The notes: generated by a model not told the origin, from the sequence alone. DNA of 44,632 bases from Candidatus Pacearchaeota archaeon (GCA_038874355.1 JAVZCO010000001.1:108913-153544), one strand, 5' to 3'. Numbered from the stretch's first letter, positions 3,722-32,655 are shown. Numbers and translations are program-made.

Positions 3722-3722
3722 T

Positions 3723-4838: not shown

Positions 4839-4946
4839 AATGTTCGTTATAAGGTTTTGCATCTATCCTTCATTCTCTTTAAAATTGTCTCTTAACCATA
4901 ATTAAAAAACCTTAAATATAAAAAGCCAAATTAATGTTATATAATT

Positions 4947-5494: not shown

Positions 5495-5578
5495 AAGATA
5501 ATTTTAAAAAGCTAACTTTAACTATTTATATCAAATTATAACAACAAAATTTATAACTATCTTCTTACATAATGAATT

Positions 5579-6541: not shown

Positions 6542-6581
6542 AATAGAAATATTTAAATATTTTAAAATTGACTAAAGAAAA

Positions 6582-6764: not shown

Positions 6765-6795
6765 AATTTATAAATAAATAATTCATTAAGAAAAG

Positions 6796-8111: not shown

Positions 8112-8687
8112 ATGTTAGAAAGAGATTTATTTACTTTTTTAATAAAAGAAGAAGAAAGAATAGCAAAAAAAATAGCTAAGGATATGCCAGAAATTGCAAG
8201 AGATTATAAAAATGGACTTTCTCAAAGAGAAATTGTCATTAAATATGATATAATGAAGAATTATTTTCCTTTAAATGTATCAATTAAAGTGGGTATGTCT
8301 ACTGTAGGTAAAGCTTTAAAATTACTAATTCCTGAAAAAGAAAGAAGAATTTTGAAAGAAAAAATTCAAAAAAAGTGGGCTGGTGTTGGAGGTCTTACTG
8401 CATATCTTAATCAAAAAGGAATACATAATAAAAATTATAATAATTATGAAAAAAGGATTAAAGCTACATTGAAAGGATTACAAGCTAGAGATAAAAAACC
8501 ATTTAAAAATTTAGAAAAGAAAATGATTCTAGCCATGGCAAAAGATCATCGGTATTTACATCAAAAAATAAAAAAAGGACATCCCGATTTTAAAAAAATA
8601 CAAGCTACACTAAAAGAAGTTTTTGGATATGAGAGATCAATAAAATCTTTAGAAAGAGAATATTTAATATTAAAGAAGAATTATTAA
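8112..8687 (+). CDS. Hypothetical helix-turn-helix protein directly behind tRNA-Ala
   Basis: I do not recognise a named family for this 191-residue basic protein. It is mainly helical. Residues about 22-70 contain a likely helix-turn-helix (MPEIARDYKNGLSQREIVIK, then a second helix around STVGKALKLLIPEKERR), and a GVGGLTAYL segment follows. The C-terminal half is rich in Lys, Arg and aromatic residues (AMAKDHRYLHQKIKKGHPDF). It starts 19 bases after the tRNA-Ala 3' end, which leaves no room for its own TATA box, so it is probably co-transcribed with the tRNA. Its stop overlaps the convergent glyS stop. A nucleic-acid-binding role is inferred. Confidence 0.6.
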   Translation: MLERDLFTFLIKEEERIAKKIAKDMPEIARDYKNGLSQREIVIKYDIMKNYFPLNVSIKVGMSTVGKALKLLIPEKERRILKEKIQKKWAGVGGLTAYLNQKGIHNKNYNNYEKRIKATLKGLQARDKKPFKNLEKKMILAMAKDHRYLHQKIKKGHPDFKKIQATLKEVFGYERSIKSLEREYLILKKNY

Positions 8688-10348
8688 ATTTTTTTTCTTG
8701 TATTAACAATTTTACCAGCATCTTCAAATTTAATTTCTTTTTCAATTAATTTCTTTAAGGTATTTTTTAAATCTTTTATATCTACTCTAATCTGTTGTGT
8801 TGTATCTCTATCACGAATAGTGCAATCTTTTTTAGTTATAGACTCTTCATCAACAGTCACACAATATGGTGTTCCTATTTCATCTTGTCTTGCATATCTT
8901 CTTCCTATACTAGCACTATCATCATAAAAAACATTAAATTCTTTTTTTAATTCTTTATATATTTCTTTTGCTAATTTTTCATAATTTTCATTTTTTACTA
9001 TAGGAAAAATTGCTGCTTTTATCGGAGCCAAATAAGATGGAATTTTCAAAACTATATTTTCTCTTTTTTCATCATATTCATAACCTTTACATATTATAGC
9101 TAAGAATATTCTATCCATACCAAAAGTCGGTTCTATTACTTTAGGTATTATTTTTAATTTTGTTTTTTCATCATAAATACTTAATTTTTCTTTACTTTCT
9201 TTTTCGTGTTGTGTTAAATCATATTGTCCTCTATTTGCAATTCCCGCTATTTCTAAAATTCCGAATGGAAATTCGTAATCTATATCAAAAGTTGCTGAAG
9301 AATAATGAGATAATTCATCTTTTTTATGTTCTCTTACTCTAATATTATCTATTAAGTTTAGTTTATTGAACCACATTATTTGTTCTGCAAGCCAATAAGC
9401 ATGCCATTCTTCTAATCTTTTTTCTTTTATCATCTCTTTAATAGTTACTTCTCTAATCTCTTCTTTTCCAGCCTCTTGAGTTTCTTTGTCAAGTAATTTT
9501 AATCTTAAATTTAAATGTTCTTCATCTAATAGATTACATTTATTCTCATTAGGATTAATAAAAAATTCAAATTCTCCTATAGTAAATTCTCTGCTTCTGA
9601 AAATAAAATCTCTAGGAGAAATTTCATTTCTAAAACATTTCCCTATTTGTAATATACCAAAAGGTAATTTTACTCTGCTAGTTTCGTAGATATTTTTAAA
9701 ATTAAGGAACATTCCTTGAGCTGTTTCTGGTCTTAAATAAGTTTCTATAGGATTTAAGGCTCCAACATTAGTTTTAAACATTAAATTAAAATTTCCCAAT
9801 AATTCATAATTGCCACCACAATCACATTTTTTGTTATTTATTTCTGATTTATCTAATTTAATTGCTTTTTTGCATTTTTTGCATACAGCAGCAAAATCTT
9901 GAAAATTTGATACATGCCCAGAGGCATACCAAGTTTTTGGATGACTTATAATTGACGCTTCTATAAAAACCATATCATCTCTATTATACAAAAAAAATTT
10001 TAGAAAATCTTTTTTTAAGTTATTAAAAAGCTCTGCTCCTAACGGCCCATAATCCCAAAAACCAGATAAACCCCCATAAATTTCACTTGATTTAAAAATA
10101 AAACTTTTTCTCTTACAAAAACTAGCTAATTCTTCTATAGTTAATTTTATTTTATTTTCTTTTTCTATTTCTTCCATTTTATTTTTTTCATTAAATTCTT
10201 TTAAAATTTTTTGGAAATTTTTTTCTGCTTCTTCTTTTGTTTTACCTAAATAAGCGATTGTTATTGATTTAATTTTTCCTTTTTCTCTTTTACTAGTTCT
10301 TGCATAATAATATTCTTTTCCATTTATTCTTTTCTTAACAATAAACAT
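8684..10348 (-). CDS. glyS: Glycyl-tRNA synthetase with an extra N-terminal domain
   Basis: This class II synthetase of the archaeal/eukaryotic type charges tRNA-Gly. The core begins around residue 60 (KLTIEELASFCKRKSFIFKS) with SGFWDYGPLG, the zinc-like CKKCKKAI...CDCGG insertion, RPETAQGMFLNFKNI, motif 2 IGKCFRNEISPR, motif 3 EPTFGMDRIFLAI, and the anticodon-binding domain (APIKAAIFPI, then SIGRRYARQDEIGTP). The start at 10348 gives 554 residues and sits 26 bases after TTTATAAA. It adds about 55 residues (MFIVKKRINGKEYYYARTSK ... TIAYLGKTKEEAEK) resembling the small beta module found at the N-terminus of some archaeal Fic-like and transposase-like proteins. An ATG further upstream (10471) lies inside the trpS coding sequence and is unlikely. 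Confidence 0.93.
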   Translation of the reverse strand: MFIVKKRINGKEYYYARTSKREKGKIKSITIAYLGKTKEEAEKNFQKILKEFNEKNKMEEIEKENKIKLTIEELASFCKRKSFIFKSSEIYGGLSGFWDYGPLGAELFNNLKKDFLKFFLYNRDDMVFIEASIISHPKTWYASGHVSNFQDFAAVCKKCKKAIKLDKSEINNKKCDCGGNYELLGNFNLMFKTNVGALNPIETYLRPETAQGMFLNFKNIYETSRVKLPFGILQIGKCFRNEISPRDFIFRSREFTIGEFEFFINPNENKCNLLDEEHLNLRLKLLDKETQEAGKEEIREVTIKEMIKEKRLEEWHAYWLAEQIMWFNKLNLIDNIRVREHKKDELSHYSSATFDIDYEFPFGILEIAGIANRGQYDLTQHEKESKEKLSIYDEKTKLKIIPKVIEPTFGMDRIFLAIICKGYEYDEKRENIVLKIPSYLAPIKAAIFPIVKNENYEKLAKEIYKELKKEFNVFYDDSASIGRRYARQDEIGTPYCVTVDEESITKKDCTIRDRDTTQQIRVDIKDLKNTLKKLIEKEIKFEDAGKIVNTRKKI

Positions 10349-10369
10349 ATATGTAGTGGTTAAATCAAT

Positions 10370-10377
10370 TTTATAAA
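10370..10377 (-). promoter_or_regulatory. TATA box of glyS
   Basis: TTTATAAA on the reverse strand is centred about 26 bases before the ATG at 10348, in the 46-base gap behind trpS. It fixes the glyS start so that the extra N-terminal domain is included. Confidence 0.65.
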
Positions 10378-10394
10378 TCTTATTAAAATAAATT

Positions 10395-11522
10395 TTATAT
10401 CTTAAAAATAAACTTCTCAATAAGATTTTTTGCTTCCTTTCTTTTCTTTTGATGTTCTTTAAGAAAAGCATTTATCTTTTCTATTAAATAAGCTTTTAAT
10501 TCGCTTGTTGACATTTTTCCCCTTCTATAATTATCTTCAATTTCTTTTAGTTTTTTATCATCTGGCTCAAAAAACATTTTTAAATATTGAAAACTTATAT
10601 CAACATCAGGATTGCCTCCAAGTTTTCTGTGTAATTCTATTGTTGGCTGGCCACCAGAGAAAGCATATTTTTTTATTTTTCTTTCAACTTCTTCTGGAGT
10701 ATCAGTTGTAAGTATTGCATCTCTATCTTTATTCCCACTACTATCCATTTTCCCAGAAACCCCTGATAATGGTGGAAGAAAAATACCATGAATCAATGAT
10801 GGTTTGTAAAATCCTAATTTAGGATAAACATCTCTGGCAACTCTGAAATGAGGGTCTTGATCTATTGCTAGAGGTATCAAACAAGGTATATTTTTTCCTT
10901 TTAGTATGCTAGGAATAATTGCAGGAACAGCTTGCATACTTGTATAGAAAATTTGTCCAATATTGTTAGAATCATTAAATCCAAAGGCAGCTTTTACAGT
11001 AGATAAAGTTATTTTTTTGGCAAATTTTATTGCTTCTGGATAAATTAAGTTAGCATGTTTAGTATCTATTAAAAAATGAGTTTTATCAGGATTAAATCCA
11101 ACAGCTATAACATCCAACATGTTTTCATAAGTCCATTTTTGTATTTCCTCGAAAGATTTTTCTTTAAACAGGAATTTTTCATCATCTGTAAATTGGAATA
11201 ATAATTCTACATTAAATTTATCTTGGAGCCATTTAGTGAATATCCATGTTCCTAAATGCCCTAAGTGTACAGGCCCGGATGGTCCTCTTCCAGTATATAA
11301 AAAAAATTTATTTCCTTTTTCATATTCGTCTAAAAGCCAATTTAGATCTCTATGAGCAAAAAATATCTTTCTTCTTAACATTGGATGTAATTCGCCTGTA
11401 TGCTTTTTAATTCTTTCAAGGAGTTTATTATTAATTTTTGAAATTCCAAATTCTTTTATAAACTCATCATAATTAATTTTACCAGAGACTTCCCAAGGTG
11501 TAACTTTAAAATCTCTTTGCAT
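10395..11522 (-). CDS. trpS: Tryptophanyl-tRNA synthetase
   Basis: This class I synthetase charges tRNA-Trp. YTGRGPSGPVHLGHLGTWIF carries the HIGH-type motif (HLGH), and GVSGKMDSSG is the KMSKS-type loop of the archaeal/eukaryotic form. DQDPHFRVARDV and TSMQAVPAIIPSIL are also typical. At 375 residues the length is normal. TTTATAAA 26 bases upstream (11545-11552) gives a leaderless mRNA. Its product and GlyRS are encoded in tandem, but GlyRS has its own TATA box in the gap. Confidence 0.95.
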   Translation of the reverse strand: MQRDFKVTPWEVSGKINYDEFIKEFGISKINNKLLERIKKHTGELHPMLRRKIFFAHRDLNWLLDEYEKGNKFFLYTGRGPSGPVHLGHLGTWIFTKWLQDKFNVELLFQFTDDEKFLFKEKSFEEIQKWTYENMLDVIAVGFNPDKTHFLIDTKHANLIYPEAIKFAKKITLSTVKAAFGFNDSNNIGQIFYTSMQAVPAIIPSILKGKNIPCLIPLAIDQDPHFRVARDVYPKLGFYKPSLIHGIFLPPLSGVSGKMDSSGNKDRDAILTTDTPEEVERKIKKYAFSGGQPTIELHRKLGGNPDVDISFQYLKMFFEPDDKKLKEIEDNYRRGKMSTSELKAYLIEKINAFLKEHQKKRKEAKNLIEKFIFKI

Positions 11523-11544
11523 ATTAAAATTTAAACTAACTTTA

Positions 11545-11552
11545 TTTATAAA
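11545..11552 (-). promoter_or_regulatory. TATA box of trpS
   Basis: TTTATAAA is centred 26 bases before the trpS ATG, so transcription would begin at the start codon. Confidence 0.65.
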
Positions 11553-11696
11553 GTTACTTATTATGAAAAATACCTTTATTATAATGTATACTTAATTTAT
11601 TTTTTCTTAATAAAATTCTTTTTTAAAATTAGAATATCTATGCTTTTTTCTTTGCTTCTTCTATAATTTGTTTTCTTTTCTCTAATATTATTCTTA

Positions 11697-11768
11697 AGCG
11701 TGGGGAGGGAATCGAACCCCCGAAAAGCAGCTCTGCAGGCTGCCGCAGTACCACTGTGCCACCCACGC
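11697..11768 (-). tRNA. tRNA-Cys (GCA anticodon)
   Basis: On the reverse strand: acceptor GCGTGGG/CCCACGC, anticodon stem GCAGC/GCTGC with loop CTGCAGA (anticodon GCA), and T arm GGGGG-TTCGATT-CCCTC. The discriminator base is U, the expected cysteine identity element. No intron. Confidence 0.95.
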
Positions 11769-11912
11769 CTAATTAATAAAACTAATTAGTTATTTTAAAT
11801 ATTTCCTTTTTCCTAAAATGAAAAAAATTTATAAACTATTTATAATAATAACTTTTTAGTTAGTTAAATAATTAAGGGTTAATATAAAATTTTTTATTTA
11901 ATTTTATAGAAA

Positions 11913-12248
11913 ATGAAAAAAGAAATAATAATAGAAGTGAATGAAAATAATTTTAAAGAAAAAGTTATAAATAAAAGCAAAGAAATTCCAATAGTCGTTG
12001 ATTTTTGGGCTGATTGGTGTATGCCTTGTTTAATGTTATCCCCTATATTAGAATCTTTAGCAAAAAAATTTAATGGAAAATTTATTTTAGCAAAAGCTAA
12101 TATAGATGACACACCTTATATAGCAAAAAAATATAATATTACAACTATACCTTCAGTAAAAATGATAAAAAATGGCGAGATTACTGACGAATTTATAGGT
12201 CTAATTCCGGAAGAAGAAATAGAAAAATGGATAAATAAAAATTTATAA
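11913..12248 (+). CDS. trxA: Thioredoxin
   Basis: This 111-residue thioredoxin has the active site WADWCMPCLMLSP (the CxxC is CMPC rather than the common CGPC), the cis-proline loop TTIPSVKMIKNGE and a C-terminal helix. It reduces protein disulfides in the cytoplasm and is recharged by the reductase encoded 22 bases downstream. AATATAAAA lies about 28 bases before the ATG. The methionine between the cysteines may change its redox potential (inference). Confidence 0.95.
   Translation: MKKEIIIEVNENNFKEKVINKSKEIPIVVDFWADWCMPCLMLSPILESLAKKFNGKFILAKANIDDTPYIAKKYNITTIPSVKMIKNGEITDEFIGLIPEEEIEKWINKNL
12241..12248 (+). promoter_or_regulatory. TATA box of the thioredoxin reductase gene
   Basis: TTTATAAG overlaps the end of trxA and is centred about 26 bases before the next ATG at 12271, so trxB and the following gene can be transcribed without trxA. 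Confidence 0.5.
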
Positions 12249-12270
12249 GTATATTTTTTCTTATTTAAAC

Positions 12271-13176
12271 ATGGTAATTTATGACTTGATTATAATTGGT
12301 GCTGGTCCCGCTGGTTTAACAGCTTCTCTATATGCTGGAAGGTATAAATTAAAATGTTTACTTATATATTCTTTATTAGGCGGGACTATGACAGAAGCTT
12401 ACAACATAGAAAATTTTCCTTCTTATAAAAATATTTCTGGTATTGAATTAACAAAAAGAATTTATGAACAAATAAAAAATTTAAAAGTAGAGGAAAAATT
12501 AGAGGTTGTAAAAAAAATAGAAAAAGAGAAAAAATTTTTTTCTATTTTAACAGATAAAAATAGATATTATTCAAAAACAATAATAATAGCAACAGGAAGA
12601 GAAAAAGCAAAATTAAATTTAAAAAATGAAGATAAATTTTTAGGAAAGGGAATTCATTATTGCGCTAGTTGTGATGCTCCTTTTTATAAAAATAAAATTG
12701 TTGCTGTCGTAGGAGGGGGGAATTGCGCATTAAATTCATCTTTATTACTAAGCAAATATGCTAAAAAAGTTTATATAATATACAGAAAAAAAGATTTCAT
12801 TAGAGCGGATAAAATTTTAGTAGATAAAATAAAGAAAAATAAAAAAATTAAAATTTTATTCAATAGGAATATAGAAGAATTAATTGGAAAAGAAAAATTA
12901 GAACAAATAAGATTAGATAATAATAAAAAAATTAAAGTTGATGGTTTATTTATAGAAATAGGATATGTTCCTAATAAAGAAATATTTAAAAATTTGAAAA
13001 TAAAATTTGAAAATAATTATATCAAAGTAAATAATAAACAAGAAACAAATATTAAAGGTATTTTCGCAGCTGGTGATATAACTTCAAACAATTTAAAACA
13101 AATAATTACAGCATGTGGAGAGGGAGCAATTGCTGCTTTTTCTGCTTATAACTTTATAAAAGAAAAGGAAAAATAA
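12271..13176 (+). CDS. trxB: Thioredoxin reductase
   Basis: This flavoprotein passes electrons from a nicotinamide cofactor to thioredoxin. The FAD-binding GAGPAGLTASLYAGR is at the N-terminus, followed by the redox-active CASCDAPF (usual form CATCDGPF) and the second nucleotide-binding site VVGGGNCALNSSLLLSKYA. GIFAAGDI is near the C-terminus. The NADPH-type HRRxxxR pattern is replaced by YRKKDFIRA, so cofactor preference is uncertain. The 301 residues are normal. It lies just after trxA and 15 bases before the diadenylate cyclase gene. Confidence 0.95.
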   Translation: MVIYDLIIIGAGPAGLTASLYAGRYKLKCLLIYSLLGGTMTEAYNIENFPSYKNISGIELTKRIYEQIKNLKVEEKLEVVKKIEKEKKFFSILTDKNRYYSKTIIIATGREKAKLNLKNEDKFLGKGIHYCASCDAPFYKNKIVAVVGGGNCALNSSLLLSKYAKKVYIIYRKKDFIRADKILVDKIKKNKKIKILFNRNIEELIGKEKLEQIRLDNNKKIKVDGLFIEIGYVPNKEIFKNLKIKFENNYIKVNNKQETNIKGIFAAGDITSNNLKQIITACGEGAIAAFSAYNFIKEKEK

Positions 13177-13191
13177 AAGAAAAATAGAAAA

Positions 13192-13809
13192 ATGAAAGCA
13201 AAAAAAAGTGAAAATAAAAGAAAAAAAATAGAAGAAATTTTAATAAAAGTAGGAATAGAAATAGCAAGAAAAGGCGGAGGTGCTTTATTTATAATTAGTG
13301 ATAGCTGTAAATACAAAAGATTATTAAAACAAAAAATAAAACCATTTTCAATTTTTGAAAAAGGAGCGGAAAAGATATTAATGTCTATTGGAACAATAGA
13401 TGGAGCTGTAATAGTAAATTCAAAAGGGATGATAAAAGATTATGGAGCTTTTATTAAATCAAAAAAAATATTTAAAGGTTTTGGTACAAGACACATTGCT
13501 GCTTATAATGCTTCATTAAATAAAGATACAATTGCAATTCTTGTTTCAGAAGAAGAAAAAAAAGTTAAAATATTTAAGGAAGGAAAGATAATATTACAAT
13601 TTGACACTTTAGAAAAAAATATACAAAAAAACGTAAATGAAACTTTTAAGCTATTAGAAAGTTTAGGGTTTGGAACATTATCTTCTGTAAGTATATCTAC
13701 TTTAATCCCTGGTCTTGGAGTATCTATTTTTCCTGGAATAATTTTATTTGCAGCTCCTTATTACATATTCAGAAAAATACAAGAAAAAAGAAAAACAAAG
13801 AAATTTTAA
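13192..13809 (+). CDS. Predicted diadenylate cyclase (c-di-AMP synthase) with a C-terminal membrane segment
   Basis: The two signatures of the DAC domain are present in order: TIDGAVIVNSKG (DGA at 70-72) and GFGTRHIAAYNASLNKDTIA (Arg100-His101, followed by Ile instead of the third basic residue of RHR), then VSEEEKKVKIFKEG. The domain joins two ATP into cyclic di-AMP, a second messenger that in archaea has been tied to osmotic balance. Residues about 165-196 are hydrophobic (TLIPGLGVSIFPGIILFAAP) and may anchor it by a hairpin, leaving a basic tail. There is no N-terminal extra domain as in euryarchaeal DacZ. It has no TATA box of its own and is probably co-transcribed with trxB. Confidence 0.82.
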   Translation: MKAKKSENKRKKIEEILIKVGIEIARKGGGALFIISDSCKYKRLLKQKIKPFSIFEKGAEKILMSIGTIDGAVIVNSKGMIKDYGAFIKSKKIFKGFGTRHIAAYNASLNKDTIAILVSEEEKKVKIFKEGKIILQFDTLEKNIQKNVNETFKLLESLGFGTLSSVSISTLIPGLGVSIFPGIILFAAPYYIFRKIQEKRKTKKF

Positions 13810-13833
13810 ATATAAAAAAATAGTATAATATAT

Positions 13834-13908
13834 GCTCCCGTAGCTCAGTCTGGATAGAGCACCGCACTTCTAATGCGGGGGTCGAGGGTTCAAATCCTTC
13901 CGGGAGCA
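13834..13908 (+). tRNA. tRNA-Arg (TCT anticodon)
   Basis: Acceptor GCTCCCG/CGGGAGC, anticodon stem CCGCA/TGCGG with loop CTTCTAA (anticodon TCT), and T arm GAGGG-TTCAAAT-CCTTC. Discriminator A. It reads AGA/AGG, the main arginine codons in this AT-rich genome. Confidence 0.95.
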
Positions 13909-13979
13909 TTTTAGTAATATTTTAATAAAATATTTTATAAAATAGATAATTTCTTAAAATATAATTTATTATATTAAAT

Positions 13980-14879
13980 ATGAAAATACCGATATATTTT
14001 TTAGGAACATCCCATGCAATTCCAACAGAAAAAAGAAATCATACAGCAATATGGTTAAATTATAAAGCAGAAAATATATTAATAGATTGCGGAGAGGGAA
14101 CTCAAAGACAAATAAGAAAAATGAAATTAAATCCTTGTTCTTTAACAAAAATACTAATTACTCACTGGCACGGAGATCATATTTTAGGTTTACCAGGATT
14201 ACTTCAAACTCTTGTATTAAATGGTTATAATAAAAAATTAGATATATATGGCCCAAAAGGAACCTATAATTTCTTAAATCTTATTCTAAAGATGTTTGTT
14301 TTTAAAGGAAAAATTAATTTAGAAATTCATGAAGTTGACGAAGGAATTATAATAAATGAAAAAGATTATTATATAGAAGCAAAAAGAATGAAACACGCTA
14401 CTTATTGCTTAGCATATTCCTTCATAGAAAAAGATAAAATTAGAATAGATAAAGAAAAATTAAAGAAATTAAAAATAAAAGAATGTAAAGAATTAGCAAA
14501 ATTAAAAGAAGGAAAAGATATAATTCTAAATGGGAAGAAAGTAAAAGCATCTTATCTTACTTACAAAGAGAAAGGTAAAAAAATAACTTTTGTTTTGGAT
14601 AGTTCTTTTAATAATAATATGATAGAAATTGCAAAAAATTCTAATTTGTTGATCTGTGAAGCAAGTTATAGTAAAATTGATAAAGAAAAAGCGATAAATT
14701 ATTATCACCTTACTTCTGAAGAAGCTGCTTTAATTGCAAAAAAAGCTAAATGTAAAAGATTAATTTTATTACATATAAGTCAAAGATATGAAAATAAAGA
14801 GAAAATATTGTTAAATGAAGCAAGAAAAATATTTAAAGAAACAAAATTAGCAAATGATTTAGAAAAAATAGAAATATAG
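13980..14879 (+). CDS. rnz: Ribonuclease Z (tRNA 3'-processing endonuclease)
   Basis: RNase Z cuts precursor tRNAs just after the discriminator base so that CCA can be added, which fits the lack of encoded CCA in all tRNAs here. FLGTSHAIPTEKRNHTAIWL, DCGEGTQRQIRKM and the metallo-beta-lactamase motif THWHGDH are diagnostic, with further metal ligands at CEASY...HLTSEEAA and LLHISQRYE. The 299-residue short form is the usual archaeal homodimer. A TATA-like CTTAAAATA lies about 23-27 bases upstream. Confidence 0.95.
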   Translation: MKIPIYFLGTSHAIPTEKRNHTAIWLNYKAENILIDCGEGTQRQIRKMKLNPCSLTKILITHWHGDHILGLPGLLQTLVLNGYNKKLDIYGPKGTYNFLNLILKMFVFKGKINLEIHEVDEGIIINEKDYYIEAKRMKHATYCLAYSFIEKDKIRIDKEKLKKLKIKECKELAKLKEGKDIILNGKKVKASYLTYKEKGKKITFVLDSSFNNNMIEIAKNSNLLICEASYSKIDKEKAINYYHLTSEEAALIAKKAKCKRLILLHISQRYENKEKILLNEARKIFKETKLANDLEKIEI

Positions 14880-14925
14880 TTCTTACTATAGATATTTTCT
14901 TTATGCGAAAATTTAATAATAACGC

Positions 14926-15162
14926 TTAAACTTTAGAAGGAGATATATAAATTATTGTATCTCCTCTTAGAAAAGTAAGTCCAAGATTTTTTTTAACTTC
15001 TCCATTCTCTATTTCTTTCGAATTATCTAGAACGATGTTTACATGTATATCAAATGCTAACAAAGTTCCAACCAATTGTTTGTCATTTTTCAATTGAACT
15101 AAAATTTCTTTTCCCTTGCTATTATTCAATAAGTCCAAAGGTCTTTCAATTTCGTTAACCAT
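14926..15162 (-). CDS. Sm-like archaeal protein (SmAP/LSm)
   Basis: This 78-residue protein has an N-terminal helix and Sm1 motif (KQLVGTLLAFDIHVNIVLDN) and the Sm2 motif LRGDTIIYISP. Such proteins form hexameric or heptameric rings that bind U-rich RNA. TTTTTAAATA lies about 25 bases upstream, giving a leaderless mRNA. It is convergent with rnz. Confidence 0.93.
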   Translation of the reverse strand: MVNEIERPLDLLNNSKGKEILVQLKNDKQLVGTLLAFDIHVNIVLDNSKEIENGEVKKNLGLTFLRGDTIIYISPSKV

Positions 15163-15251
15163 AAAAGAAAATTAATTTTTTTATTTAAAAAGTTTTTGTT
15201 TTTTATGTTAAAAAAAGAAAAATATATAAACTATGATTAAAAAGAAAAAAT

Positions 15252-15620
15252 ATGAAAACAGGAAGAAAAATAACTGGAGGAAAATATCATCATTATAGAA
15301 AAAAAAGAAAATCAGAAAGATCAAGAAATATTAGATTAGTAAAACTTGGAGAACCAAAAAAGAAAAAAATAAGGATGTATGGAGGTAAATATAAAACAGT
15401 TTTACTTTCTTCTAATGTTATAAATGTTATAGTTGGAAAAAAATGTAAAAAAGTTAAAATAAAAAATGTCCTTGAAACTCCAAATAATAAATTCTTAGCA
15501 AGACAAAATCTAATGACTAAAGGAACAATAGTTGAAACAGAACTTGGAAAAGTAAAAATAACAAATAGACCTGGCCAAGAAGGACAAATTAATGGAATCT
15601 TAATTGAAAAACAAAAATAA
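15252..15620 (+). CDS. rps8e: 30S ribosomal protein S8e
   Basis: The start MKTGRKITGGKYHHYRKKRK is diagnostic of S8e, followed by VLETPNNKFLARQNLMTKGT and NRPGQEGQINGILI at the end. The 122 residues match the archaeal length, shorter than the eukaryotic S8e. AATATATAAAC lies 26 bases before the ATG. The protein binds 16S rRNA in the small-subunit body. Confidence 0.95.
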   Translation: MKTGRKITGGKYHHYRKKRKSERSRNIRLVKLGEPKKKKIRMYGGKYKTVLLSSNVINVIVGKKCKKVKIKNVLETPNNKFLARQNLMTKGTIVETELGKVKITNRPGQEGQINGILIEKQK

Positions 15621-23993: not shown

Positions 23994-26900
23994 TTAAGAA
24001 AGTTCTTTCTCTATTTCTTTTAACTTTTCATACCTACTCCATACTTGCTCTACATATTTATCTTGTTCTGGGTATTTTGGATTACATTTCCAACCATTAT
24101 ATCCTCTTAAAGCAGCTTGCCATCCATAATATATCTTTGATCTATATTCCTCGCTGCATGCATTACTAAATTGTTTTCCATTTTTATATGCATCATACAT
24201 TTCCTTCAAAATTGCTGTTCCTATTTTTATATTTATTTCAGTATCTTTCAATTCTTCTTTAGATTTCAAATTAAATTTATCTTTCCATTTATTAAAACTA
24301 ATTTGCATTAAACCATAAGAAGAACCGATAGAAACATCTTTTTTACATTCGGATTCTTGTATTATTACTGCAAGTGTTAATAAAGGATCAATTCCATTTT
24401 CTTTTGAATATTTTAATATATTTTCAGAAATATCTTCACAATAATCAACACATTTACATTTTTTATTATCACCATCTATTCCATAGTTCTTTACATTTTC
24501 TATTATTTTTTTAATTCTTTCTTTTTCTTCATTAGATATTTCGTTTTCTTCTTCTGAAGAAGAAGTTTTTTTCTTATTAGAACAAAAATAATCCCTATAA
24601 ATTCCTGAATAATCAATAATTCTTAAACTATAAAAATATAATAGATTTTTATCTTTTATTTCTCCTTGGCTTAGTTTATATTTAAATATATAAATTATAC
24701 AAAAAGCTTTTTGGTATTCATCTTTTAAATTAGAGCATTGGTTATATAAGTAATAACTATTTTTTCCTTCAAAAGCACTTTTTAATTCAGAAGATAACAG
24801 TGATAATTGTGAATCTGGTCCTTTGTTAATTGTGTTTTTATAACCAGCAAAATGTGTATCATTTTTAATATATATTGCTTTATTTTTGTTGCTTTTTTCT
24901 AAATCTAATTGATAACCCATCTTAGATTCTGCTGAAACAATAGCAGCTAATAAAGCTTTAAAAGATTCTTCATCAAAACCTTCTGGAAGATTTTTCTTTG
25001 CATATTTATTAAAATATTCTTTATACTCTTCATATCTTTTTTTATATACAGAATTAAGTTCATAATTACTTTTACATCCTTCACTACATTTTAAACAAAA
25101 TTTTTTTTCTTTATTTTGTGTTGTAGAAGAAATTGCATAACCAACAATAACATTATTTGTAATATAATTATAATCTGGTTCTAATGGATAATAAAGAGGT
25201 TCTTCTTCTAAAAAGCATTTTTCTTGAATATATAGGTTATATACACTTTCTAAATCTTTTTTAATTAAATCTAAATTTTTTAATTCTTTTTCATAATCTT
25301 TTATTAAATTTAAATTTCCTATGATATCAAAATATCCTATTTGAACATCCTCTACAAAGAAATCTGTTCCTAAAAATTTTCTATCTAAATATAAGTCTCC
25401 AGCAGGATAATTAAAGTATAATCCAGTTTCTTTTCTTGATTTCAATATTTTTATTTTTTCACCATTATTCTTTTCATCTTCATAAGATAATTGATTATTG
25501 TCTAGGCTTGTTTGGCCATTCTGACTTTTGCCTTCTTTTATATCTTCTGCAATAACGCTAACTATTTTTCTTAAAGTATACTTTTTATATTCTTCTTTTA
25601 CTAAATTTTCATATATTTTATATGTATTATATAATAATTCTGCTTTTCTATTGTCTAAAGAAGATTTTTGCAAGAATTCTTTTAATTTTTGTAAATAATC
25701 ATTAGAAGGTTCTTTTGATTTATCTTTTTCTTTTAATTCTTTATAATTTTGTTCTTCATTAAAAACTATTCCTTCTTGTTGTTTTAATTTTTCAAAAACT
25801 TCCTTTTCATATTCTTGTAAGGTTTTTATTGTTTGATTTCTTAGTTCTATGTTTTGTATAGCGTTTTTTACAGATTCTGTGTCAAGCCAGCATTTTATGT
25901 TCTTACTTTTATCACACCAGCCTACAGCAATCCATCTTCCTTCTTTTGAAGCACTAGAATAAATATCTTTAGAAGGTTCTCCTGTAGAACAAACTCTTAT
26001 TATTCCTATATTTGAAATATCAGGATTAGTATAAGATGAAATTCCTTCTTGTAAATTTAAATTAGCTAAACTATAATAACTTGAAGTTCCATAAACACAT
26101 TCTTCTTCTGAATTAATCTCTTTATTTTTAACTTGTTGTTCTACATATTTATCTTTTAAATAATTTATTGTAAAATCTGTTGTCACTTGCTTAAAACCAC
26201 ATTTTTCTTGGTTATTTATTTTTACACATAATTCATCATATCCAGCTGGTCCTAAGAAATCTTTCGTCTCAGAAGCATATTCTCCTTGCTTTACGTATCC
26301 TGTTGTTACTAACATGGTTTCTTTTAAATTAAAGAATTGTGTTGATGCAGAAGTTGCCTTTAAGTAAATAGAATAATAAACTCCTGAATCTTTTCCTGCA
26401 TAAATATGATAATAAACTTTATAATGTGTTGTTTCTGTTGTTGTAACATCTGTATAAGGTATTTGATCTAAAGTAGCATAAAATTGTACAGGACTTGGTG
26501 GTTCTGCCAATTTATCAAAAACATCTGAAACAGAAGGATAATTAGCAGAAATAAAACTTTTGCATATCTCTGTTTGTATATTTTTTGTTGTTCTTTCTTT
26601 AAACGCTTGCATAACATTTATTCCATAATAATTAGTGAAATAATTAAAAGAATTTTCCATATTTTTCCATGCGTCATTTATGGTTAGATATTCTCCTCCA
26701 CCATAAGATGTTGATTTTCCTGCTAATAATCCTAAGAATTTAGGAAAACCATATCTTAAAAGAGGAACTAGTTGTCTCCATGTTAAATCACATAAATAAA
26801 TACTGTATATTTCATCACACATCCCTACCATTCTTCCTGTATTTAAATTTTCTTGTAAACAATCCCTATGTGCTTTTAATAAAGAAGAATATGCTTGTAA

Positions 26901-29900
26901 TCCTGCATTAACTCCTGTCAAACATACAGGAACTAAAACCTTTCCTTCAGAAGGAGAACCAAAATTAGGTAAACACAAAACTAAACTTCCTATTATTCCT
27001 TCTTGGATAACATTTTGTGTTGGCCATGTTCCACCTAAATTACATCTTGAAGCAGGACACATAACAGGATCACAGACATTAAATAATATAGCACAATCTT
27101 CAACAGACATATAATCATAGCAGTTCCCATTTGGAATATTTACAGCTCTTTCAAAAACAAAATAATTTCCATCAATGATTATACCTTTTTCTCCATTTAG
27201 ATAAGCTTTTGATACTTTTTCTACTGTATTTATTCCTTTTATTATTAATTGTTTTGCTTCATTTTGACTTAATGCACATGGTAATTGATCTAATGGCTGA
27301 TTTGAGTTCATGTCTATTCTCGTACATATATCATCACCACCAGATTCAAATTCTTCTTTTCCATTAGATCCAACATTACATAAATAAAATGTTGATAACA
27401 TTCCTGAACTTGAATAAGGTTTAGAAGAAGTTGCTCCTAAAAAAGATAAAGAAGGTTTTGTTGCAATATACCAACCTTGCTTTAAATCAAAAGGAACTAA
27501 TTTAGGCATTCCTTTAAATGGCTCTGTATCATAAACAGCAATTTTTTTGTTTATTATTTGATAAGTATTTTTACACTCTCCTGAAGAAACAAAAATTATA
27601 TCTTTTATATCATTATACTTTAATTTTTCACAACTTGTATTTATTGAAGATAATTCGCCATTATTAAATTCATTTGAATTAATAATATATTCGCTACTTC
27701 CTTCACCTAGCAATCTCACAGGAACAGCATATAAACAATTATTTTTTACAATTGTTACATATTTACTTTCATTTTTTTCTATTATCTTTGCATTAATTTT
27801 TCTAGCATTATCAGACAAAAATATAGGTATTGCTCCTTTATAACCAACGTTTTCAAATTCTTTTGAAATACTATTTTCTCTTTCATCATTTTCTTTTAAT
27901 TTTTTTATTTGCTCAACCAAAGAATTAATTTTATTCTCTTCTAAAGGAATACTAGCATTTTTTGTTTTTGAATAAAAAATAATTTCTCTCATATCATAAA
28001 CTGTTAAATATCCTTTTTCTATTAAATCATTAATAGTATTTATTGAATTAAAGGTTTGATTTAGGTTATTATCATTTTTTATTTCTTGATAGAAATATTG
28101 TGTTAAATTTTTAGCAATTTCTTTTTGGGTATTTCCTGAAGATTGTGCTGATTCTATCTTTTGATTTATTTCATTTATTATTTCTGTAACTTTTTCAACA
28201 TCTTTATTTATTTTATCTTTATTTTTATAAAAACACTCATCTAAACTTTTGTGTTCTCCTTTTACAACTAATTCTGCACATCTTTCATTCCAACCTCCCT
28301 TTGAAGTCATAACATATGTTCTTGCTGTTGCTTTTCCTCCTATGTTTGCAAACATATTTTTTATGTTTAATATAGTAGCTGTAGCAATACAAGTCTTTGT
28401 CCATGTTTTAACAACATTGTTTAAGTTATTAGAAATTTTTTCAACTTGCTCTAATGTTTTATTTATATTTTCTATTCTTTCTTTTGTTTTTTCTGGTGTT
28501 AATTTTATTGCTCTTTTTTCTATTCCTATAGAAACAGCAAAATTGGTTTCGGTTCTTCCAAAATTTGTTTTAGGAATTAATTTTATTTTTGCTAGATAAT
28601 TTGCATTTATATCAACTAATTTTATTTTTATATTTCCTTCTTGTATAAGTTTTGGATTTTGTTCATTTAAATTTACTTTTATTTCTTTTTCTATCCACTC
28701 ATTTTCTTTCGTTTTGTATTTATAAGAAATTTTTGCAGATTCTTTTTCTATACTTCCTAATATAATAGAAATATTTTCATCCTGATAAATAATTTCTCCT
28801 AATCCAACTAACCCGATATCTGTATATGATTTTTTTATTCTTCCTTCATTATCATAAATATCAAATTTTGCGCTTACTTCTTCTTTATTAGGATATTTTA
28901 TGTTTTTCAATGTTATAAGATGCGTTTCTCCTTGGTGTTCAAAAAATAAACTTGATGAAGAAAAATCTAATAAAGAAGATTTCGCTATTTCATCTTGGAC
29001 TTTATTTACCAATTTAGAATCTGAATATTGATCTATTAATTTATTCAATAATTCTATTTGTGTTTTTTGCTTTCCAATAATTTTCGCTGTTTCTGCTAAT
29101 TCATATAAAGCTAGTGCCCCATAATATTCTCCTGCATATTCTCCTGCATCTATTTTTTCCTTTCCATAATCCTTAACGATTATGTCAACATAATCCTTTG
29201 CTTTTGAAAAATAATCATTAATATTATTTGTATTTTCTTCATAATCTGCTTTTTCTATTATGACTGGTTCATTAAAGGTATAACTTTCTTCTGTTTTTGA
29301 TTTTTCTATTATAAGGATATTATTCTGTTGAATTCCTAATTCTGTTGCTGTATCTTTTTTTATTGCTTCTTTAAATTTTTCCCATTCTAACTTTGTTTTT
29401 GAATTTATTCCTTTTTTTATTGATTCGAGTTTTTCTGTTTTTATTTTTCCATCTTTTATATTAATATCAGAAACATTTTTTGCTATAACTATAAATTCTT
29501 TTTGTTGGTTATTTTCTTTTTTTATTCCATAATATAATAGAAAATCCTTTTCTTTTAAATTCTGGCCAATTTTCTTTTCTTCATTATTTATTTTAACATA
29601 ATTTGAAAATCCTATAGATAAAAAATAATTTTTTCCTGCACATCTTAATTCTATTTGATTTAAGTTTCTATCAATTTTATTAATTGTACATTCTCCTACT
29701 TTTTCATTTTCATATACCCATGTTTCAATACCATCATATTCTATTAGAGCCCTTTCTTTTGGTAATTCCTGGTCGATATATTTTATAATTAATCCTGCTT
29801 TACAATAAAAACCTGGAATATATATTATAGAAGATTCCTTTCCTTTATCTAAAGTTATTTTTTTATAGACATTGCTTTTATCAGAATATATAGAAACCAT

Positions 29901-30644
29901 TGCTTTATTTTCATTAATATCTTCCAATCTTAAATAACCCTTTCCCTTCCAAAAACCATAATTAGTATATTCTGAATTCCATTCTTCATTTTCTAATAAA
30001 GGTAAATAATAAGTGTTATCTTTTCCTATACCTAAAGCATTTTCTACATCATATTCTATTATTGCTGTTAAACTAGCATTAACTTCATTTGGCATATCCT
30101 TTTCTGATTTCTGTTTTTTTAAGTTAATAACCACATATCCTAAATCTGTAAAAATTGGATTAGTTATTGTATTAGTAGTAGCACCTATAGAGGATTTAGA
30201 AGGAAAATAACTTGCTCCAGCTATTATATTACTTTGATTATTAACTTTTATTCTTACACTTTTTATCTTATCTGTCTTTATTAAAGGATTTATTTTTGTT
30301 GCAACAATCTTACAAAAAACAGGAACATTTTGCTCTTCTAATAAATCACTTCTCACAACAGAAGGCATGCAACTTCCAGGAACAACATTAACAATAAAAT
30401 CTTGGGTAGCTTCACATTTTTCTGTATCTCCATAATAAGGCCAAACTTCTTTGTAATCAAAACCGATTTTAGAATAATAATTTATTAAATCTGGTTGAGA
30501 AAATTCTACTTGATTTGGATTAGAAAGAGAATATGCTTTTATTAAGTCTATATTTAAAAAAACGAATAGAAGTACAAATAAATAAATTAATATCTTATTT
30601 TCTGTATTCTTTCTTTCTCTTTCTTTATCATAATTACATTTCAT
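23994..30644 (-). CDS. Giant exported protein with C-terminal lysozyme/transglycosylase-like domains
   Basis: This 2216-residue protein starts with a basic stretch and a hydrophobic signal or anchor (ILIYLFVLLFVFLNIDLIKA, about 22-42). The long body alternates beta-rich, Glu/Lys-rich helical and cysteine-rich parts (for example DVCDPVMCPASRCN-type clusters in the middle), suggesting disulfides outside the cell. The C-terminal 130 residues form an SLT-like domain: NGIDPLLTLAVIIQESECKK with the candidate catalytic Glu near 2097, GSSYGLMQISFNKW, and LRGYNGW. A second lysozyme-like region precedes it (about 1871-2020, AAIVSAESKMGYQ). Archaea lack murein, so the substrate is unknown: pseudomurein, a surface glycan or a bacterial neighbour's wall. 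It overlaps the previous gene by ATGA. Confidence 0.8.
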   Translation of the reverse strand: MKCNYDKERERKNTENKILIYLFVLLFVFLNIDLIKAYSLSNPNQVEFSQPDLINYYSKIGFDYKEVWPYYGDTEKCEATQDFIVNVVPGSCMPSVVRSDLLEEQNVPVFCKIVATKINPLIKTDKIKSVRIKVNNQSNIIAGASYFPSKSSIGATTNTITNPIFTDLGYVVINLKKQKSEKDMPNEVNASLTAIIEYDVENALGIGKDNTYYLPLLENEEWNSEYTNYGFWKGKGYLRLEDINENKAMVSIYSDKSNVYKKITLDKGKESSIIYIPGFYCKAGLIIKYIDQELPKERALIEYDGIETWVYENEKVGECTINKIDRNLNQIELRCAGKNYFLSIGFSNYVKINNEEKKIGQNLKEKDFLLYYGIKKENNQQKEFIVIAKNVSDINIKDGKIKTEKLESIKKGINSKTKLEWEKFKEAIKKDTATELGIQQNNILIIEKSKTEESYTFNEPVIIEKADYEENTNNINDYFSKAKDYVDIIVKDYGKEKIDAGEYAGEYYGALALYELAETAKIIGKQKTQIELLNKLIDQYSDSKLVNKVQDEIAKSSLLDFSSSSLFFEHQGETHLITLKNIKYPNKEEVSAKFDIYDNEGRIKKSYTDIGLVGLGEIIYQDENISIILGSIEKESAKISYKYKTKENEWIEKEIKVNLNEQNPKLIQEGNIKIKLVDINANYLAKIKLIPKTNFGRTETNFAVSIGIEKRAIKLTPEKTKERIENINKTLEQVEKISNNLNNVVKTWTKTCIATATILNIKNMFANIGGKATARTYVMTSKGGWNERCAELVVKGEHKSLDECFYKNKDKINKDVEKVTEIINEINQKIESAQSSGNTQKEIAKNLTQYFYQEIKNDNNLNQTFNSINTINDLIEKGYLTVYDMREIIFYSKTKNASIPLEENKINSLVEQIKKLKENDERENSISKEFENVGYKGAIPIFLSDNARKINAKIIEKNESKYVTIVKNNCLYAVPVRLLGEGSSEYIINSNEFNNGELSSINTSCEKLKYNDIKDIIFVSSGECKNTYQIINKKIAVYDTEPFKGMPKLVPFDLKQGWYIATKPSLSFLGATSSKPYSSSGMLSTFYLCNVGSNGKEEFESGGDDICTRIDMNSNQPLDQLPCALSQNEAKQLIIKGINTVEKVSKAYLNGEKGIIIDGNYFVFERAVNIPNGNCYDYMSVEDCAILFNVCDPVMCPASRCNLGGTWPTQNVIQEGIIGSLVLCLPNFGSPSEGKVLVPVCLTGVNAGLQAYSSLLKAHRDCLQENLNTGRMVGMCDEIYSIYLCDLTWRQLVPLLRYGFPKFLGLLAGKSTSYGGGEYLTINDAWKNMENSFNYFTNYYGINVMQAFKERTTKNIQTEICKSFISANYPSVSDVFDKLAEPPSPVQFYATLDQIPYTDVTTTETTHYKVYYHIYAGKDSGVYYSIYLKATSASTQFFNLKETMLVTTGYVKQGEYASETKDFLGPAGYDELCVKINNQEKCGFKQVTTDFTINYLKDKYVEQQVKNKEINSEEECVYGTSSYYSLANLNLQEGISSYTNPDISNIGIIRVCSTGEPSKDIYSSASKEGRWIAVGWCDKSKNIKCWLDTESVKNAIQNIELRNQTIKTLQEYEKEVFEKLKQQEGIVFNEEQNYKELKEKDKSKEPSNDYLQKLKEFLQKSSLDNRKAELLYNTYKIYENLVKEEYKKYTLRKIVSVIAEDIKEGKSQNGQTSLDNNQLSYEDEKNNGEKIKILKSRKETGLYFNYPAGDLYLDRKFLGTDFFVEDVQIGYFDIIGNLNLIKDYEKELKNLDLIKKDLESVYNLYIQEKCFLEEEPLYYPLEPDYNYITNNVIVGYAISSTTQNKEKKFCLKCSEGCKSNYELNSVYKKRYEEYKEYFNKYAKKNLPEGFDEESFKALLAAIVSAESKMGYQLDLEKSNKNKAIYIKNDTHFAGYKNTINKGPDSQLSLLSSELKSAFEGKNSYYLYNQCSNLKDEYQKAFCIIYIFKYKLSQGEIKDKNLLYFYSLRIIDYSGIYRDYFCSNKKKTSSSEEENEISNEEKERIKKIIENVKNYGIDGDNKKCKCVDYCEDISENILKYSKENGIDPLLTLAVIIQESECKKDVSIGSSYGLMQISFNKWKDKFNLKSKEELKDTEINIKIGTAILKEMYDAYKNGKQFSNACSEEYRSKIYYGWQAALRGYNGWKCNPKYPEQDKYVEQVWSRYEKLKEIEKELS

Positions 30645-32494
30645 TTTGCTTCTAAATTTAAAGGATTGCTTTCTATTATATAATAAATTTCTTGTAATTC
30701 TTCTAAATTAGACGGCACTTTTAAAGAACCTACATCTATTTTTATTCTTCCTGCTTCTAATTCTGATTCTGTTACATATTGATTTAATTTTCCTCCCCCA
30801 ATTACAACATTGTTTATTGTTTGGGCAGGAATTACAACATCATAACATTCTTTTTTTGTTATTCCGAAAATTCCTCCTATAACACTAGAAGGAACTTCTA
30901 CACATTTTTCTGTTTTTGATTCTGGTATATTTATACTTGTATTTTTATAAACATAAACAGTTATATTATACATTCCTTCTGTTAAATTAAAAGATTTTTG
31001 ATATGGATAATAAATAACAGTATTTTCTTCATTAGAAACAAAATAGATTATAGCGTTATCAGTTATATCTTTATTATTTGATTCTATTTTTAAATTGACT
31101 GGATATTTCTTTCTTAGCATAATATAAGCTTCATCTTCTTCGTTAGTAGAAATAATATCACTAGAATCACCATAACCTTCTGCTTTTGCAGTTAATATTC
31201 CATTTATACAATTAGGAACTTTTGTTTCTAATATAGCATCTATTCCTTTTATTTTTGTTTTTCCTAAATCGCATATTTCATTTAAACACTTAAAAGAAAT
31301 ATCTGCTTCTACTGGATTTAAATTAGAATCATAAGTATAAACTTTTAAATCTTGTGTTCTATATTTACATATTTGTTCCTCTAAAATAATATTTTCCGCT
31401 TCTTTAATAGCTTCTTTTGGATTATTTCCTTTTATTATTACAAGTATAGGAAATTGAAAAAATTCTTCTTCATTATAAATTTGTATTAAAACAGGAAAGG
31501 TTAAGTCATAAACATAATGATAATTAAGAATACAAAAACCTAATAAACCCATTCCTTGCTGTAAACCTATAGGCTCTGCTATAAGCATATTATTTTTTGA
31601 ATTTTTATTTTCTAATTTAGTTATCCATTCTTTTGAATAAAGTATTCTAAAATCATTTTTAGTATTAATATTAATTGTAAAATATTTATCAAGTTCTTTA
31701 TTTTCTCTTTTTATATTACTTCCTTTTATGAAAATGAAATTATTTTCTATTGCAAGTTTTATTTCACTAGTTATATTGTCTAAATTCCATACTTTCGGGG
31801 AACAAGAAAATTCTATTCCATTGACAGGAGCATAACTATACAAAATGTCTAAAGTATAATTTTCTAAAAAAGATTCTTCTTTTTCCTTATTATAAATTTT
31901 TAAAGCATCTTCATAAAAATTGCCAAGGTTAGAATTTATGTTTTTTTTATGGGAAGAAATTTTTATTGTTTTATCTTCTCTTGAAATAATTAAATCTGCT
32001 TGTAAAGTTATTTCTATTTTATTATTTAAAATTTTTACTTCGGTTTTTGATTTATTTAAAGATATTTTAAAATCTTTTTCTTCAAATTCCGAAAAATCAC
32101 ATTTTAAATTTTCATCAATAAAATTAGCGAGTTGTTCTTCCATGTTCTTTTTAGATGGCACTTGTGTTTTAATTAAATTTCCTGCAGATACATAATACCA
32201 ATAAGGAATTCCTGTTCCTGAATAATCTAACATATTTGAAAAAGGAATATTTTTATTTCCTGGTTCAAATTTCGGTAATTCAATATAACCCCCTTGAATT
32301 TCTAAAGTATTTATTCCAATTTTTGCTGTTTCTTCTATACAAGATAAATATTTATCTTCTACTTGCTGAAAATCGCTAGGAATTATAAATGAAGTTTTAT
32401 TTTTTATCAAAAGAAAAGTTGTAATTCCTGCAACAAGTAAAATACCAACAATGACAAAAATTGTTAATTGTCCCCTTTTTGATTTTTTTAACAT
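30641..32494 (-). CDS. Exported protein with class III (pilin-like) signal, partner of the giant protein
   Basis: This 617-residue protein begins MLKKSKRGQLTIFVIVGILL, a short basic head, a Gly-Gln junction and a hydrophobic helix, like the class III signal peptides of archaeal pilins that are cut before the glutamine. The body is beta-rich with paired cysteines (EQICKYRTQDL, FKCLNEICDLGKT) and Ig/carboxypeptidase-regulatory-like segments (YPVNLKIESNNKDITDNAII; EGMYNITVYVYKN). It ends four bases inside the giant gene's start, so the two are coupled and likely act together at the cell surface. A TATA box (TATATAAA, centred 26 bases upstream) sets the start. Function unknown. Confidence 0.7.
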   Translation of the reverse strand: MLKKSKRGQLTIFVIVGILLVAGITTFLLIKNKTSFIIPSDFQQVEDKYLSCIEETAKIGINTLEIQGGYIELPKFEPGNKNIPFSNMLDYSGTGIPYWYYVSAGNLIKTQVPSKKNMEEQLANFIDENLKCDFSEFEEKDFKISLNKSKTEVKILNNKIEITLQADLIISREDKTIKISSHKKNINSNLGNFYEDALKIYNKEKEESFLENYTLDILYSYAPVNGIEFSCSPKVWNLDNITSEIKLAIENNFIFIKGSNIKRENKELDKYFTININTKNDFRILYSKEWITKLENKNSKNNMLIAEPIGLQQGMGLLGFCILNYHYVYDLTFPVLIQIYNEEEFFQFPILVIIKGNNPKEAIKEAENIILEEQICKYRTQDLKVYTYDSNLNPVEADISFKCLNEICDLGKTKIKGIDAILETKVPNCINGILTAKAEGYGDSSDIISTNEEDEAYIMLRKKYPVNLKIESNNKDITDNAIIYFVSNEENTVIYYPYQKSFNLTEGMYNITVYVYKNTSINIPESKTEKCVEVPSSVIGGIFGITKKECYDVVIPAQTINNVVIGGGKLNQYVTESELEAGRIKIDVGSLKVPSNLEELQEIYYIIESNPLNLEAK

Positions 32495-32583
32495 TAAAAA
32501 AATAATAAATATATGTATATAAATTTTGTTAAACTATGTCATATAATTATTTATTTTTAAAATTTTCTTTTTTAATAAAGAGA

Positions 32584-32655
32584 TGGGCCCACAAGGAATC
32601 GAACCTTGAACCTCTTCCACGTCAAGGAAGCGTTCTGCCATTGAACTATAGGCCC
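32584..32655 (-). tRNA. tRNA-Val (GAC anticodon)
   Basis: On the reverse strand: acceptor GGGCCTA/TGGGCCC, anticodon stem CTTCC/GGAAG with loop TTGACGT (anticodon GAC), and T arm CAAGG-TTCGATT-CCTTG. Discriminator A. No intron. Confidence 0.95.

What the first reader, a model, noticed from the sequence alone, without database searches (positions are those of the whole stretch)
23994..32494. Two-gene surface operon: pilin-signal protein plus a 2216-residue protein with tandem lysozyme-like domains
The 617-residue protein has a KRGQLTIFVIV class III signal and overlaps the giant gene by ATGA. The giant protein ends in an SLT-like domain (QES, GLMQI, RGYNGW) preceded by a second lysozyme-like region (AAIVSAESKMGYQ). 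Archaea have no murein, so such an enzyme or binder at the surface of a small archaeon could act on a host glycan, on bacterial walls or in attachment. Coupled translation suggests a single machine. This is the strongest candidate for an undescribed system here.
Basis: partly seen in the sequence, partly recalled or inferred. Interest (0 to 1): 0.72.

Follow-up and report, generated by a model that had tools for sequence, protein, structure and literature searches.

The report
Archaeal surface pair with swappable wall-cutters
A tiny archaeon carries two neighbouring genes for a membrane-anchored protein and a giant secreted protein, a pair kept throughout its lineage, and the giant often carries one of several unrelated enzymes that cut bacterial cell walls, which suggests these archaea act on bacteria.

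Summary
The genes are real and correctly placed: P0002 (617 aa, class III signal KRG|Q) overlaps P0001 (2216 aa) by ATGA. P0001 residues 2066-2201 are a true lytic-transglycosylase (SLT/GH23) domain with intact catalytic Glu2097. The second "lysozyme-like" region is a recurrent module, but its Glu is not conserved and it shows no lysozyme relationship.

The pair is strikingly conserved: a giant follows the partner in 98 of 98 checkable loci, including distant families. The partner's N-domain occurs in 316 of 371 genomes of the phylum. The giant's core (about 1690 aa) is conserved and has no recognisable fold. SLT is an exchangeable add-on: other giants carry SLT elsewhere, Amidase_3, M23, NlpC/P60 or DUF2272. 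These enzymes cut different bonds of the same polymer, so bacterial peptidoglycan is the likeliest target; the genome has no detectable Mur ligase.

The SLT-bearing giant is already described (Castelle 2021, fam00969, very probably this family). I found no earlier report of the invariant partner, the two-gene unit, the module exchange, or the parallel pairs (260-aa partner plus Cys-rich protein). Pilus-tip deployment is possible but unproven: the partner shows no pilin fold, and one single-contig genome with the pair has no detected pilus platform protein.

The parts
30641..32494 (-). Partner gene P0002, 617 aa: class III (prepilin-type) signal, about 210-aa N-domain, then Ig-like beta domains; 10 Cys, most of them invariant
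32396..32494 (-). Class III signal and hydrophobic helix (residues 1-33, KRG|QLTIFVIVG); +5 residue is Phe, not Glu
31865..32494 (-). N-domain (about residues 1-210) shared with 250-290-aa proteins that precede other large secreted proteins
30641..30644 (-). ATGA stop/start overlap between partner and giant
   Evidence: exact -4 overlap in 29 of 78 related loci
23994..30644 (-). Giant gene P0001, 2216 aa, secreted
30522..30599 (-). N-terminal hydrophobic export signal of the giant (residues 16-41); no C-terminal anchor in 55 of 55 complete relatives
29595..30557 (-). Conserved core A (residues 30-350)
28095..28727 (-). Conserved core M (residues 640-850), predicted largely helical
25575..27557 (-). 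Conserved core B (residues 1030-1690), Cys-rich, no recognisable solved or viral fold
24537..25046 (-).
24042..24449 (-). SLT/GH23 lytic-transglycosylase domain (residues 2066-2201)
24354..24356 (-). Codon of catalytic Glu2097 (QES)
32516..32523 (-). TATA-like box TTTATATA, about 26 nt before the partner's start codon (read by eye; fits a leaderless transcript)

Best explanation
This is a conserved two-gene cell-surface unit of Pacearchaeota/Woesearchaeota-type archaea. Step 1 (inferred): the partner is inserted in the membrane through its class III signal helix, processed by the genome's prepilin peptidase, and displays Ig-like domains. Step 2 (inferred): the giant, exported by its N-terminal signal and made from the same message by coupled translation, is held at the surface by the partner. 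Step 3 (shown by comparison): the giant is a conserved core plus exchangeable modules at its C-terminus or between cores A and M. Step 4 (domain shown, activity inferred): in this genome the module is an intact lytic transglycosylase that cuts MurNAc-GlcNAc strands of bacterial peptidoglycan at cell contact, to attach to, breach or feed on a bacterium.
For: Pair adjacency in 98 of 98 loci, including seven distant loci where core B is faint or undetectable but a 1520-2238-aa ORF sits in the same place. SLT domain with intact catalytic motifs, nearest solved relative MltC at 1e-16. Exchange: of 55 complete giants, 17 have SLT, 2 Amidase_3 (one also M23), 2 DUF2272 and 8 a Cys/His NlpC-like module, 29 in all. 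In 56 relatives, 15 genomes have SLT, Amidase_3, M23 or NLPC_P60 inside the giant ORF on the partner's contig. At least 17 module changes on the core tree against a shuffle mean of 26. DUF2272 belongs to the NlpC/P60-CHAP-amidase group and includes the peptidoglycan amidase Tse1 (PMC10318531). No Mur ligase in the own genome. No C-terminal anchor on giants, a membrane helix on the partner. The genome has a prepilin peptidase and pilus ATPase/platform genes.
Against: About half of complete giants (26 of 55) have no recognised lytic module, so wall cutting cannot be the function of the conserved core. Some tails carry ankyrin or leucine-rich repeats (L121, L079). No contact between the two proteins was tested. 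The NlpC-like module is recognised from its Cys/His pattern only and has no Pfam or PDB hit. All related genomes are metagenome assemblies. No activity or localisation data exist.
Confidence: 0.6

Rival explanations
1. Pilus-tip reading: the partner is a minor pilin that the genome's type IV pilus machine assembles at a filament tip, and the giant is the exposed tip protein with variable domains, as minor pilins with PilY1 or the interchangeable Tips of the Myxococcus Kil pilus.
For: Class III signal; prepilin peptidase in 52 of 56 and T2SSF platform in 53 of 56 relatives; pilus ATPase, two platform proteins and pilin-like genes in the own genome; the N-domain lacks Glu at +5, as tip pseudopilins may (own knowledge); variable-tip precedent PMC12075869.
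Against: The partner model shows no pilin among the 50 listed PDB matches, only weak Ig/adhesin-like ones. The pair is about 200 kb from the pilus locus. Genome G036, a single contig (estimated 77% complete), has the pair and a prepilin peptidase but no detected T2SSF platform. The machinery is so common that co-occurrence says little.
Confidence: 0.25
2. Adhesion only: the giant is an attachment protein and the SLT and other domains serve as binders of wall material without cutting it.
For: Half of giants lack recognised enzymes; some carry protein-binding repeats; a W-rich repeat module recurs in tails and A-M inserts; the second module has lost a putative Glu in two copies.
Against: The catalytic Glu is present in 20 of 20 SLT domains, and GLMQ and the Y of YNG are almost always kept; enzymes of unrelated folds are exchanged at the same place.
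Confidence: 0.2
3. The enzyme acts on a glycan of an archaeal host or of the cell itself (pseudomurein, S-layer glycan), not on bacterial peptidoglycan.
For: Cultivated DPANN archaea live on archaeal hosts (PMC11291902, abstract); substrate cannot be read from sequence alone.
Against: GH23, Amidase_3, M23 and NlpC/P60-group enzymes share peptidoglycan as substrate; pseudomurein lacks muramic acid and D-amino acids (own knowledge); no Mur ligase in the own genome.
Confidence: 0.08

Closest known systems
[quoted passage not shown] 2021, PMC8204110)
   Same: Same lineages, same size range (up to 3,000 aa), lytic-transglycosylase domain, extracellular; very probably the same family
   Different: That report names one domain and no partner gene; here the conserved core, the invariant partner and the exchange of SLT for amidase, M23, NlpC/P60 or DUF2272 are shown. 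Sequence identity with fam00969 could not be tested
GH23 / SLT lytic transglycosylases (MltC type)
   Same: Domain family by profile, catalytic Glu, GLMQ and YNG motifs
   Different: Sits at the end of, or inside, a giant archaeal surface protein in a genome without detectable Mur ligase
Archaeal peptidoglycan hydrolases that kill bacteria (Strock et al. 2025 PLoS Biol, PMC12352652)
   Same: Peptidoglycan hydrolases in archaea, prominent in Nanoarchaeota, aimed at bacteria
   Different: That survey lists modular enzymes and does not describe this two-gene surface unit in its main text as searched
Minor-pilin/PilY1 and Kil 'Tip' complexes (PMC12075869, PMC7541494)
   Same: Signal-bearing pilin-like protein coupled to a large variable surface protein; interchangeable exposed domains, disulfide-rich
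   Different: No pilin fold detected for the partner; not encoded with the pilus machine; no sequence relationship known
Nanohaloarchaeal giant surface (SPEARE) proteins (PMC10266531)
   Same: Giant membrane-associated DPANN surface proteins proposed in host contact
   Different: Those are 8,900-9,400 aa with a VirB4/TraG-like ATPase domain and Ig repeats; Pfam finds only SLT in P0001

Membership tests
SLT/GH23 lytic transglycosylase | Pfam SLT profile above curated cut-off | tested here: met
   45.2 bits against cut-off 21.3
SLT/GH23 lytic transglycosylase | Catalytic Glu and GLMQ / YNG motifs | tested here: met
   Glu2097, 2111-2115, 2182-2184
SLT/GH23 lytic transglycosylase | Cleavage of peptidoglycan with 1,6-anhydro product | not testable with these tools
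   needs enzyme assay
   hhalign probability 0.8%, no PDB hit, Glu replaced by Asn in two copies
fam00969 of Castelle 2021 | Up to about 3,000 aa with a lytic-transglycosylase domain, widespread in Pacearchaeota/Woesearchaeota | tested here: met
   55 complete giants of 1561-3246 aa; loci titled Pacearchaeota/Nanoarchaeota
fam00969 of Castelle 2021 | Same sequence cluster | not testable with these tools
Type IV pilin / class III signal protein | Class III signal before a hydrophobic helix | tested here: met
   KRG|QLTIFVIV, residues 6-33
Type IV pilin / class III signal protein | Glu at +5 of the mature protein | tested here: not met
   Phe13 in P0002; Phe or Tyr in the aligned family
Type IV pilin / class III signal protein | Pilin fold | tested here: inconclusive
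   model of mean pLDDT 86 with a broken N-terminal helix pair; no pilin among the 50 listed PDB hits; N-domain not searched alone
Minor-pilin/PilY1 or Kil tip complex | Encoded with or dependent on a T4P/Tad machine | tested here: inconclusive
   machine present in nearly all relatives but not linked; pair without detected T2SSF in G036 (estimated 77% complete)
SPEARE/nanohaloarchaeal giant proteins | VirB4/TraG-like ATPase domain | tested here: not met
   only SLT found by Pfam in P0001

The most novel reading that the evidence does not exclude
A lineage-wide archaeal contact machine with interchangeable warheads: a class III-signal partner and a giant core of unknown fold, maintained across Pacearchaeota and Woesearchaeota, onto which chemically unrelated peptidoglycan hydrolases are repeatedly swapped, so that these archaea attach to or prey on bacteria. 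It would be one member of a wider set of 'N-domain partner plus large secreted protein' pairs in the same genomes.
Probability: 0.4. Interest if true: 0.82.

Novelty: new variant of a known kind. Interest (0 to 1): 0.6.

Why it matters
Whether Pacearchaeota and Woesearchaeota live on bacteria or on archaea is open, because almost none are cultured. A conserved surface unit that repeatedly acquires different enzymes against one bacterial polymer is the kind of genomic trace that a bacterial target should leave, and it gives two concrete proteins and several small enzyme modules to test. If confirmed, it would add a class-wide route of archaea-bacteria antagonism or symbiosis and a protein core of unknown fold to study.

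Tried and rejected
1) Tandem lysozymes: rejected on Glu loss and lack of profile relation. 2) Phage tape-measure or tail protein carrying SLT: the core has no viral fold match at E<=0.001 and is a conserved gene of the lineage. 3) Foldseek matches of the core to diphtheria toxin chains (E about 0.03, probability up to 0.14, TM to the query below 0.1): chance. 4) Homology of the giant with the about 1290-aa Cys-rich proteins beside 260-aa partners: not found by hhalign; only the partners share a domain. 5) Solved relatives for core B, partner, W-rich repeat or NlpC-like module: none significant by sequence. 7) Recent acquisition of the SLT module by composition: its G+C (0.263) lies within the range of the other parts of the gene (0.216-0.278).

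Full report
WHAT IS THERE. A tRNA-Val gene (32584-32655) and a TATA-like TTTATATA about 26 nt before the first start codon (by eye) lie upstream, so the pair looks like its own transcription unit. P0002 has a class III signal (KRG|Q) and one hydrophobic helix. P0001 has an N-terminal export signal and no other predicted anchor. Pfam finds one domain in P0001, SLT at 2075-2183, E 8e-12. P0002 has no significant family match.

THE TRANSGLYCOSYLASE IS REAL; THE SECOND LYSOZYME IS NOT SHOWN. A profile of 20 related SLT domains finds MltC first in the PDB (1e-16), then MltE, Slt70 and goose lysozymes. The catalytic Glu (Glu2097 here) is present in all 20: 18 within the alignment and two just upstream of the aligned piece; GLMQ and the YNG tyrosine are nearly invariant. 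The upstream stretch with AAIVSAESKMGYQ is a genuine repeated module (L114 once, L132 twice). In both L132 copies the Glu is Asn, the profile does not align with SLT (probability 0.8%) and no solved lysozyme appears. Its fold was not predicted, so it remains unassigned.

THE PAIR IS A UNIT. A profile-guided scan of one-genome-per-species contigs found 163 relatives of P0002 and kept the best 80, nearly all titled Pacearchaeota or Nanoarchaeota. In 78 of 78 loci where the contig continues, a giant homologue follows on the same strand; 29 have the exact 4-base overlap. Twenty further loci chosen from distant families of the class all have a 1520-2740-aa ORF directly downstream; in seven of them core B is faint or no longer detectable. 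P0002-type sequences, at least the N-domain, occur in 316 of 371 genomes sampled over the phylum, with near-full-length matches in many.

CORE PLUS EXCHANGEABLE MODULES. Complete giants are 1561-3246 aa (median 2148). Three conserved blocks (A, M, B; window residues 30-350, 640-850, 1030-1690) make the core. The tail after B (1-1389 aa) and the A-M interval vary. SLT is found in 17 of 55 complete giants, mostly in the tail; in L074, L148, L151 and L155 it lies between A and M. Other tails carry Amidase_3 (L113, E 2.9e-40; L129, 6.9e-24), M23 (L129, 6.3e-9), DUF2272 (L114, 9.7e-18; L100, 1.5e-12), ankyrin repeats (L121) or leucine-rich repeats (L079). Eight tails share a module with an invariant Cys and His that resembles NlpC/P60 but has no Pfam or PDB match; I treat that as inference. 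In all, 29 of 55 giants have at least one candidate peptidoglycan hydrolase. Independently, in 56 relatives, Pfam hits to SLT, Amidase_3, M23 or NLPC_P60 fall inside the giant ORF on the partner's contig in 15 genomes, sometimes two in one giant (against the coordinates). On a tree of 58 core B sequences the module state changes at least 17 times (shuffle mean 26, minimum 20; two rows with truncated tails left out); SLT presence is close to unstructured (13 against a mean of 16). L082 and L103 have closely related cores, but only L103 has SLT. The tree is a FastTree with many weak forks, so the counts are approximate.

WHY PEPTIDOGLYCAN. The exchanged enzymes have different folds and cut different bonds (glycan strand, amide, cross-link peptide). 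Their common substrate is peptidoglycan, from established knowledge of these families; DUF2272 belongs to the NlpC/P60-CHAP-amidase group and includes Tse1 (PMC10318531). The own genome, 95.8% complete, has no Mur ligase match while 12 of 14 control genomes do. That argues for bacterial walls and against a self or archaeal-host glycan, but is not an activity test.

THE PARTNER. AlphaFold gives a confident model (mean pLDDT 86): helices 6-32 and 40-66, then a mostly beta body. The best PDB matches are weak, Ig-like adhesin and shaft proteins; no type IV pilin is in the 50 listed. The N-domain also occurs as stand-alone 250-290-aa proteins with the same kind of signal. In 15 of 15 examined cases these directly precede a 489-1373-aa protein, 14 of them rich in Cys; two such pairs lie in the own genome (L053). 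Those large proteins are not homologous to P0001 by hhalign. So the N-domain seems to mark a general partner for large secreted proteins.

THE CORE. Residues 640-1690 were modelled with moderate confidence (pLDDT 74). No PDB or viral fold matches at E<=0.001. What the core does is unknown; it must matter by itself, because it is kept where no lytic module is recognised.

PILUS CONNECTION. The own genome has a pilus ATPase, two platform proteins, pilin-like genes and a prepilin peptidase, as do nearly all relatives. However, G036, a single contig estimated 77% complete, has the pair and the peptidase but no detected T2SSF. Tip display as in the Myxococcus Kil pilus (PMC12075869) is a rival, not the main claim.

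PRIOR KNOWLEDGE. Castelle et al. 2021 (PMC8204110) reported proteins up to 3,000 aa with a transglycosylase domain in these lineages and proposed attachment to bacterial walls; later papers take this up or report similar genes (PMC9723730, PMC10936187, PMC11537232). In the main text of the 2021 paper I found no mention of a pilin or surface partner. The library holds open-licence papers only, so an earlier description elsewhere is possible.

VERDICT. The transglycosylase giant is a new member of a described kind. The invariant two-gene unit, the module exchange and the wider set of partner/giant pairs are what is new, hence 'new variant of a known kind'.

Noticed in passing
L053:2433-3224 with 3449-7324 and L053:7370-8125 with 8336-11956 (own genome G000:C1 about 290-300 kb): Two tandem pairs of a class III-signal 260-aa protein followed by a 1206-1291-aa Cys-rich protein (66-68 Cys); the same arrangement recurs in relatives (L054-L060).
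   Followed up: partly
L061:7138-7944 (own genome G000:C1:493542): A second SLT-domain protein, 268 aa with a hydrophobic stretch, outside the giant; a further exported transglycosylase candidate.
   Followed up: no
L061:4022-5921: By eye, bacterial-type GroES and GroEL genes next to each other in this archaeon, followed by a small heat-shock-like protein.
   Followed up: no
L059:13926-16337 and L069:8297-10293: Runs of four small proteins, each starting with a class III-like or hydrophobic N-terminal signal; possible pilin-like operons of unknown role.
   Followed up: no
L067:13776-15047: By eye, a RuBisCO large-subunit-like gene (423 aa) near the pilus locus of the own genome, as reported for Pacearchaeota.
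   Followed up: no
L118:16264-16935 and tails or A-M inserts of many giants: A W-rich repeat module (conserved Trp, Phe and Gly) occurring once to several times per giant, no PDB sequence match; a candidate binding module.
   Followed up: partly
L041:8513-9988 and 10082-15310 (G007): The giant is split into two ORFs just where SLT is inserted between cores A and M; real gene split or assembly error.
   Followed up: no
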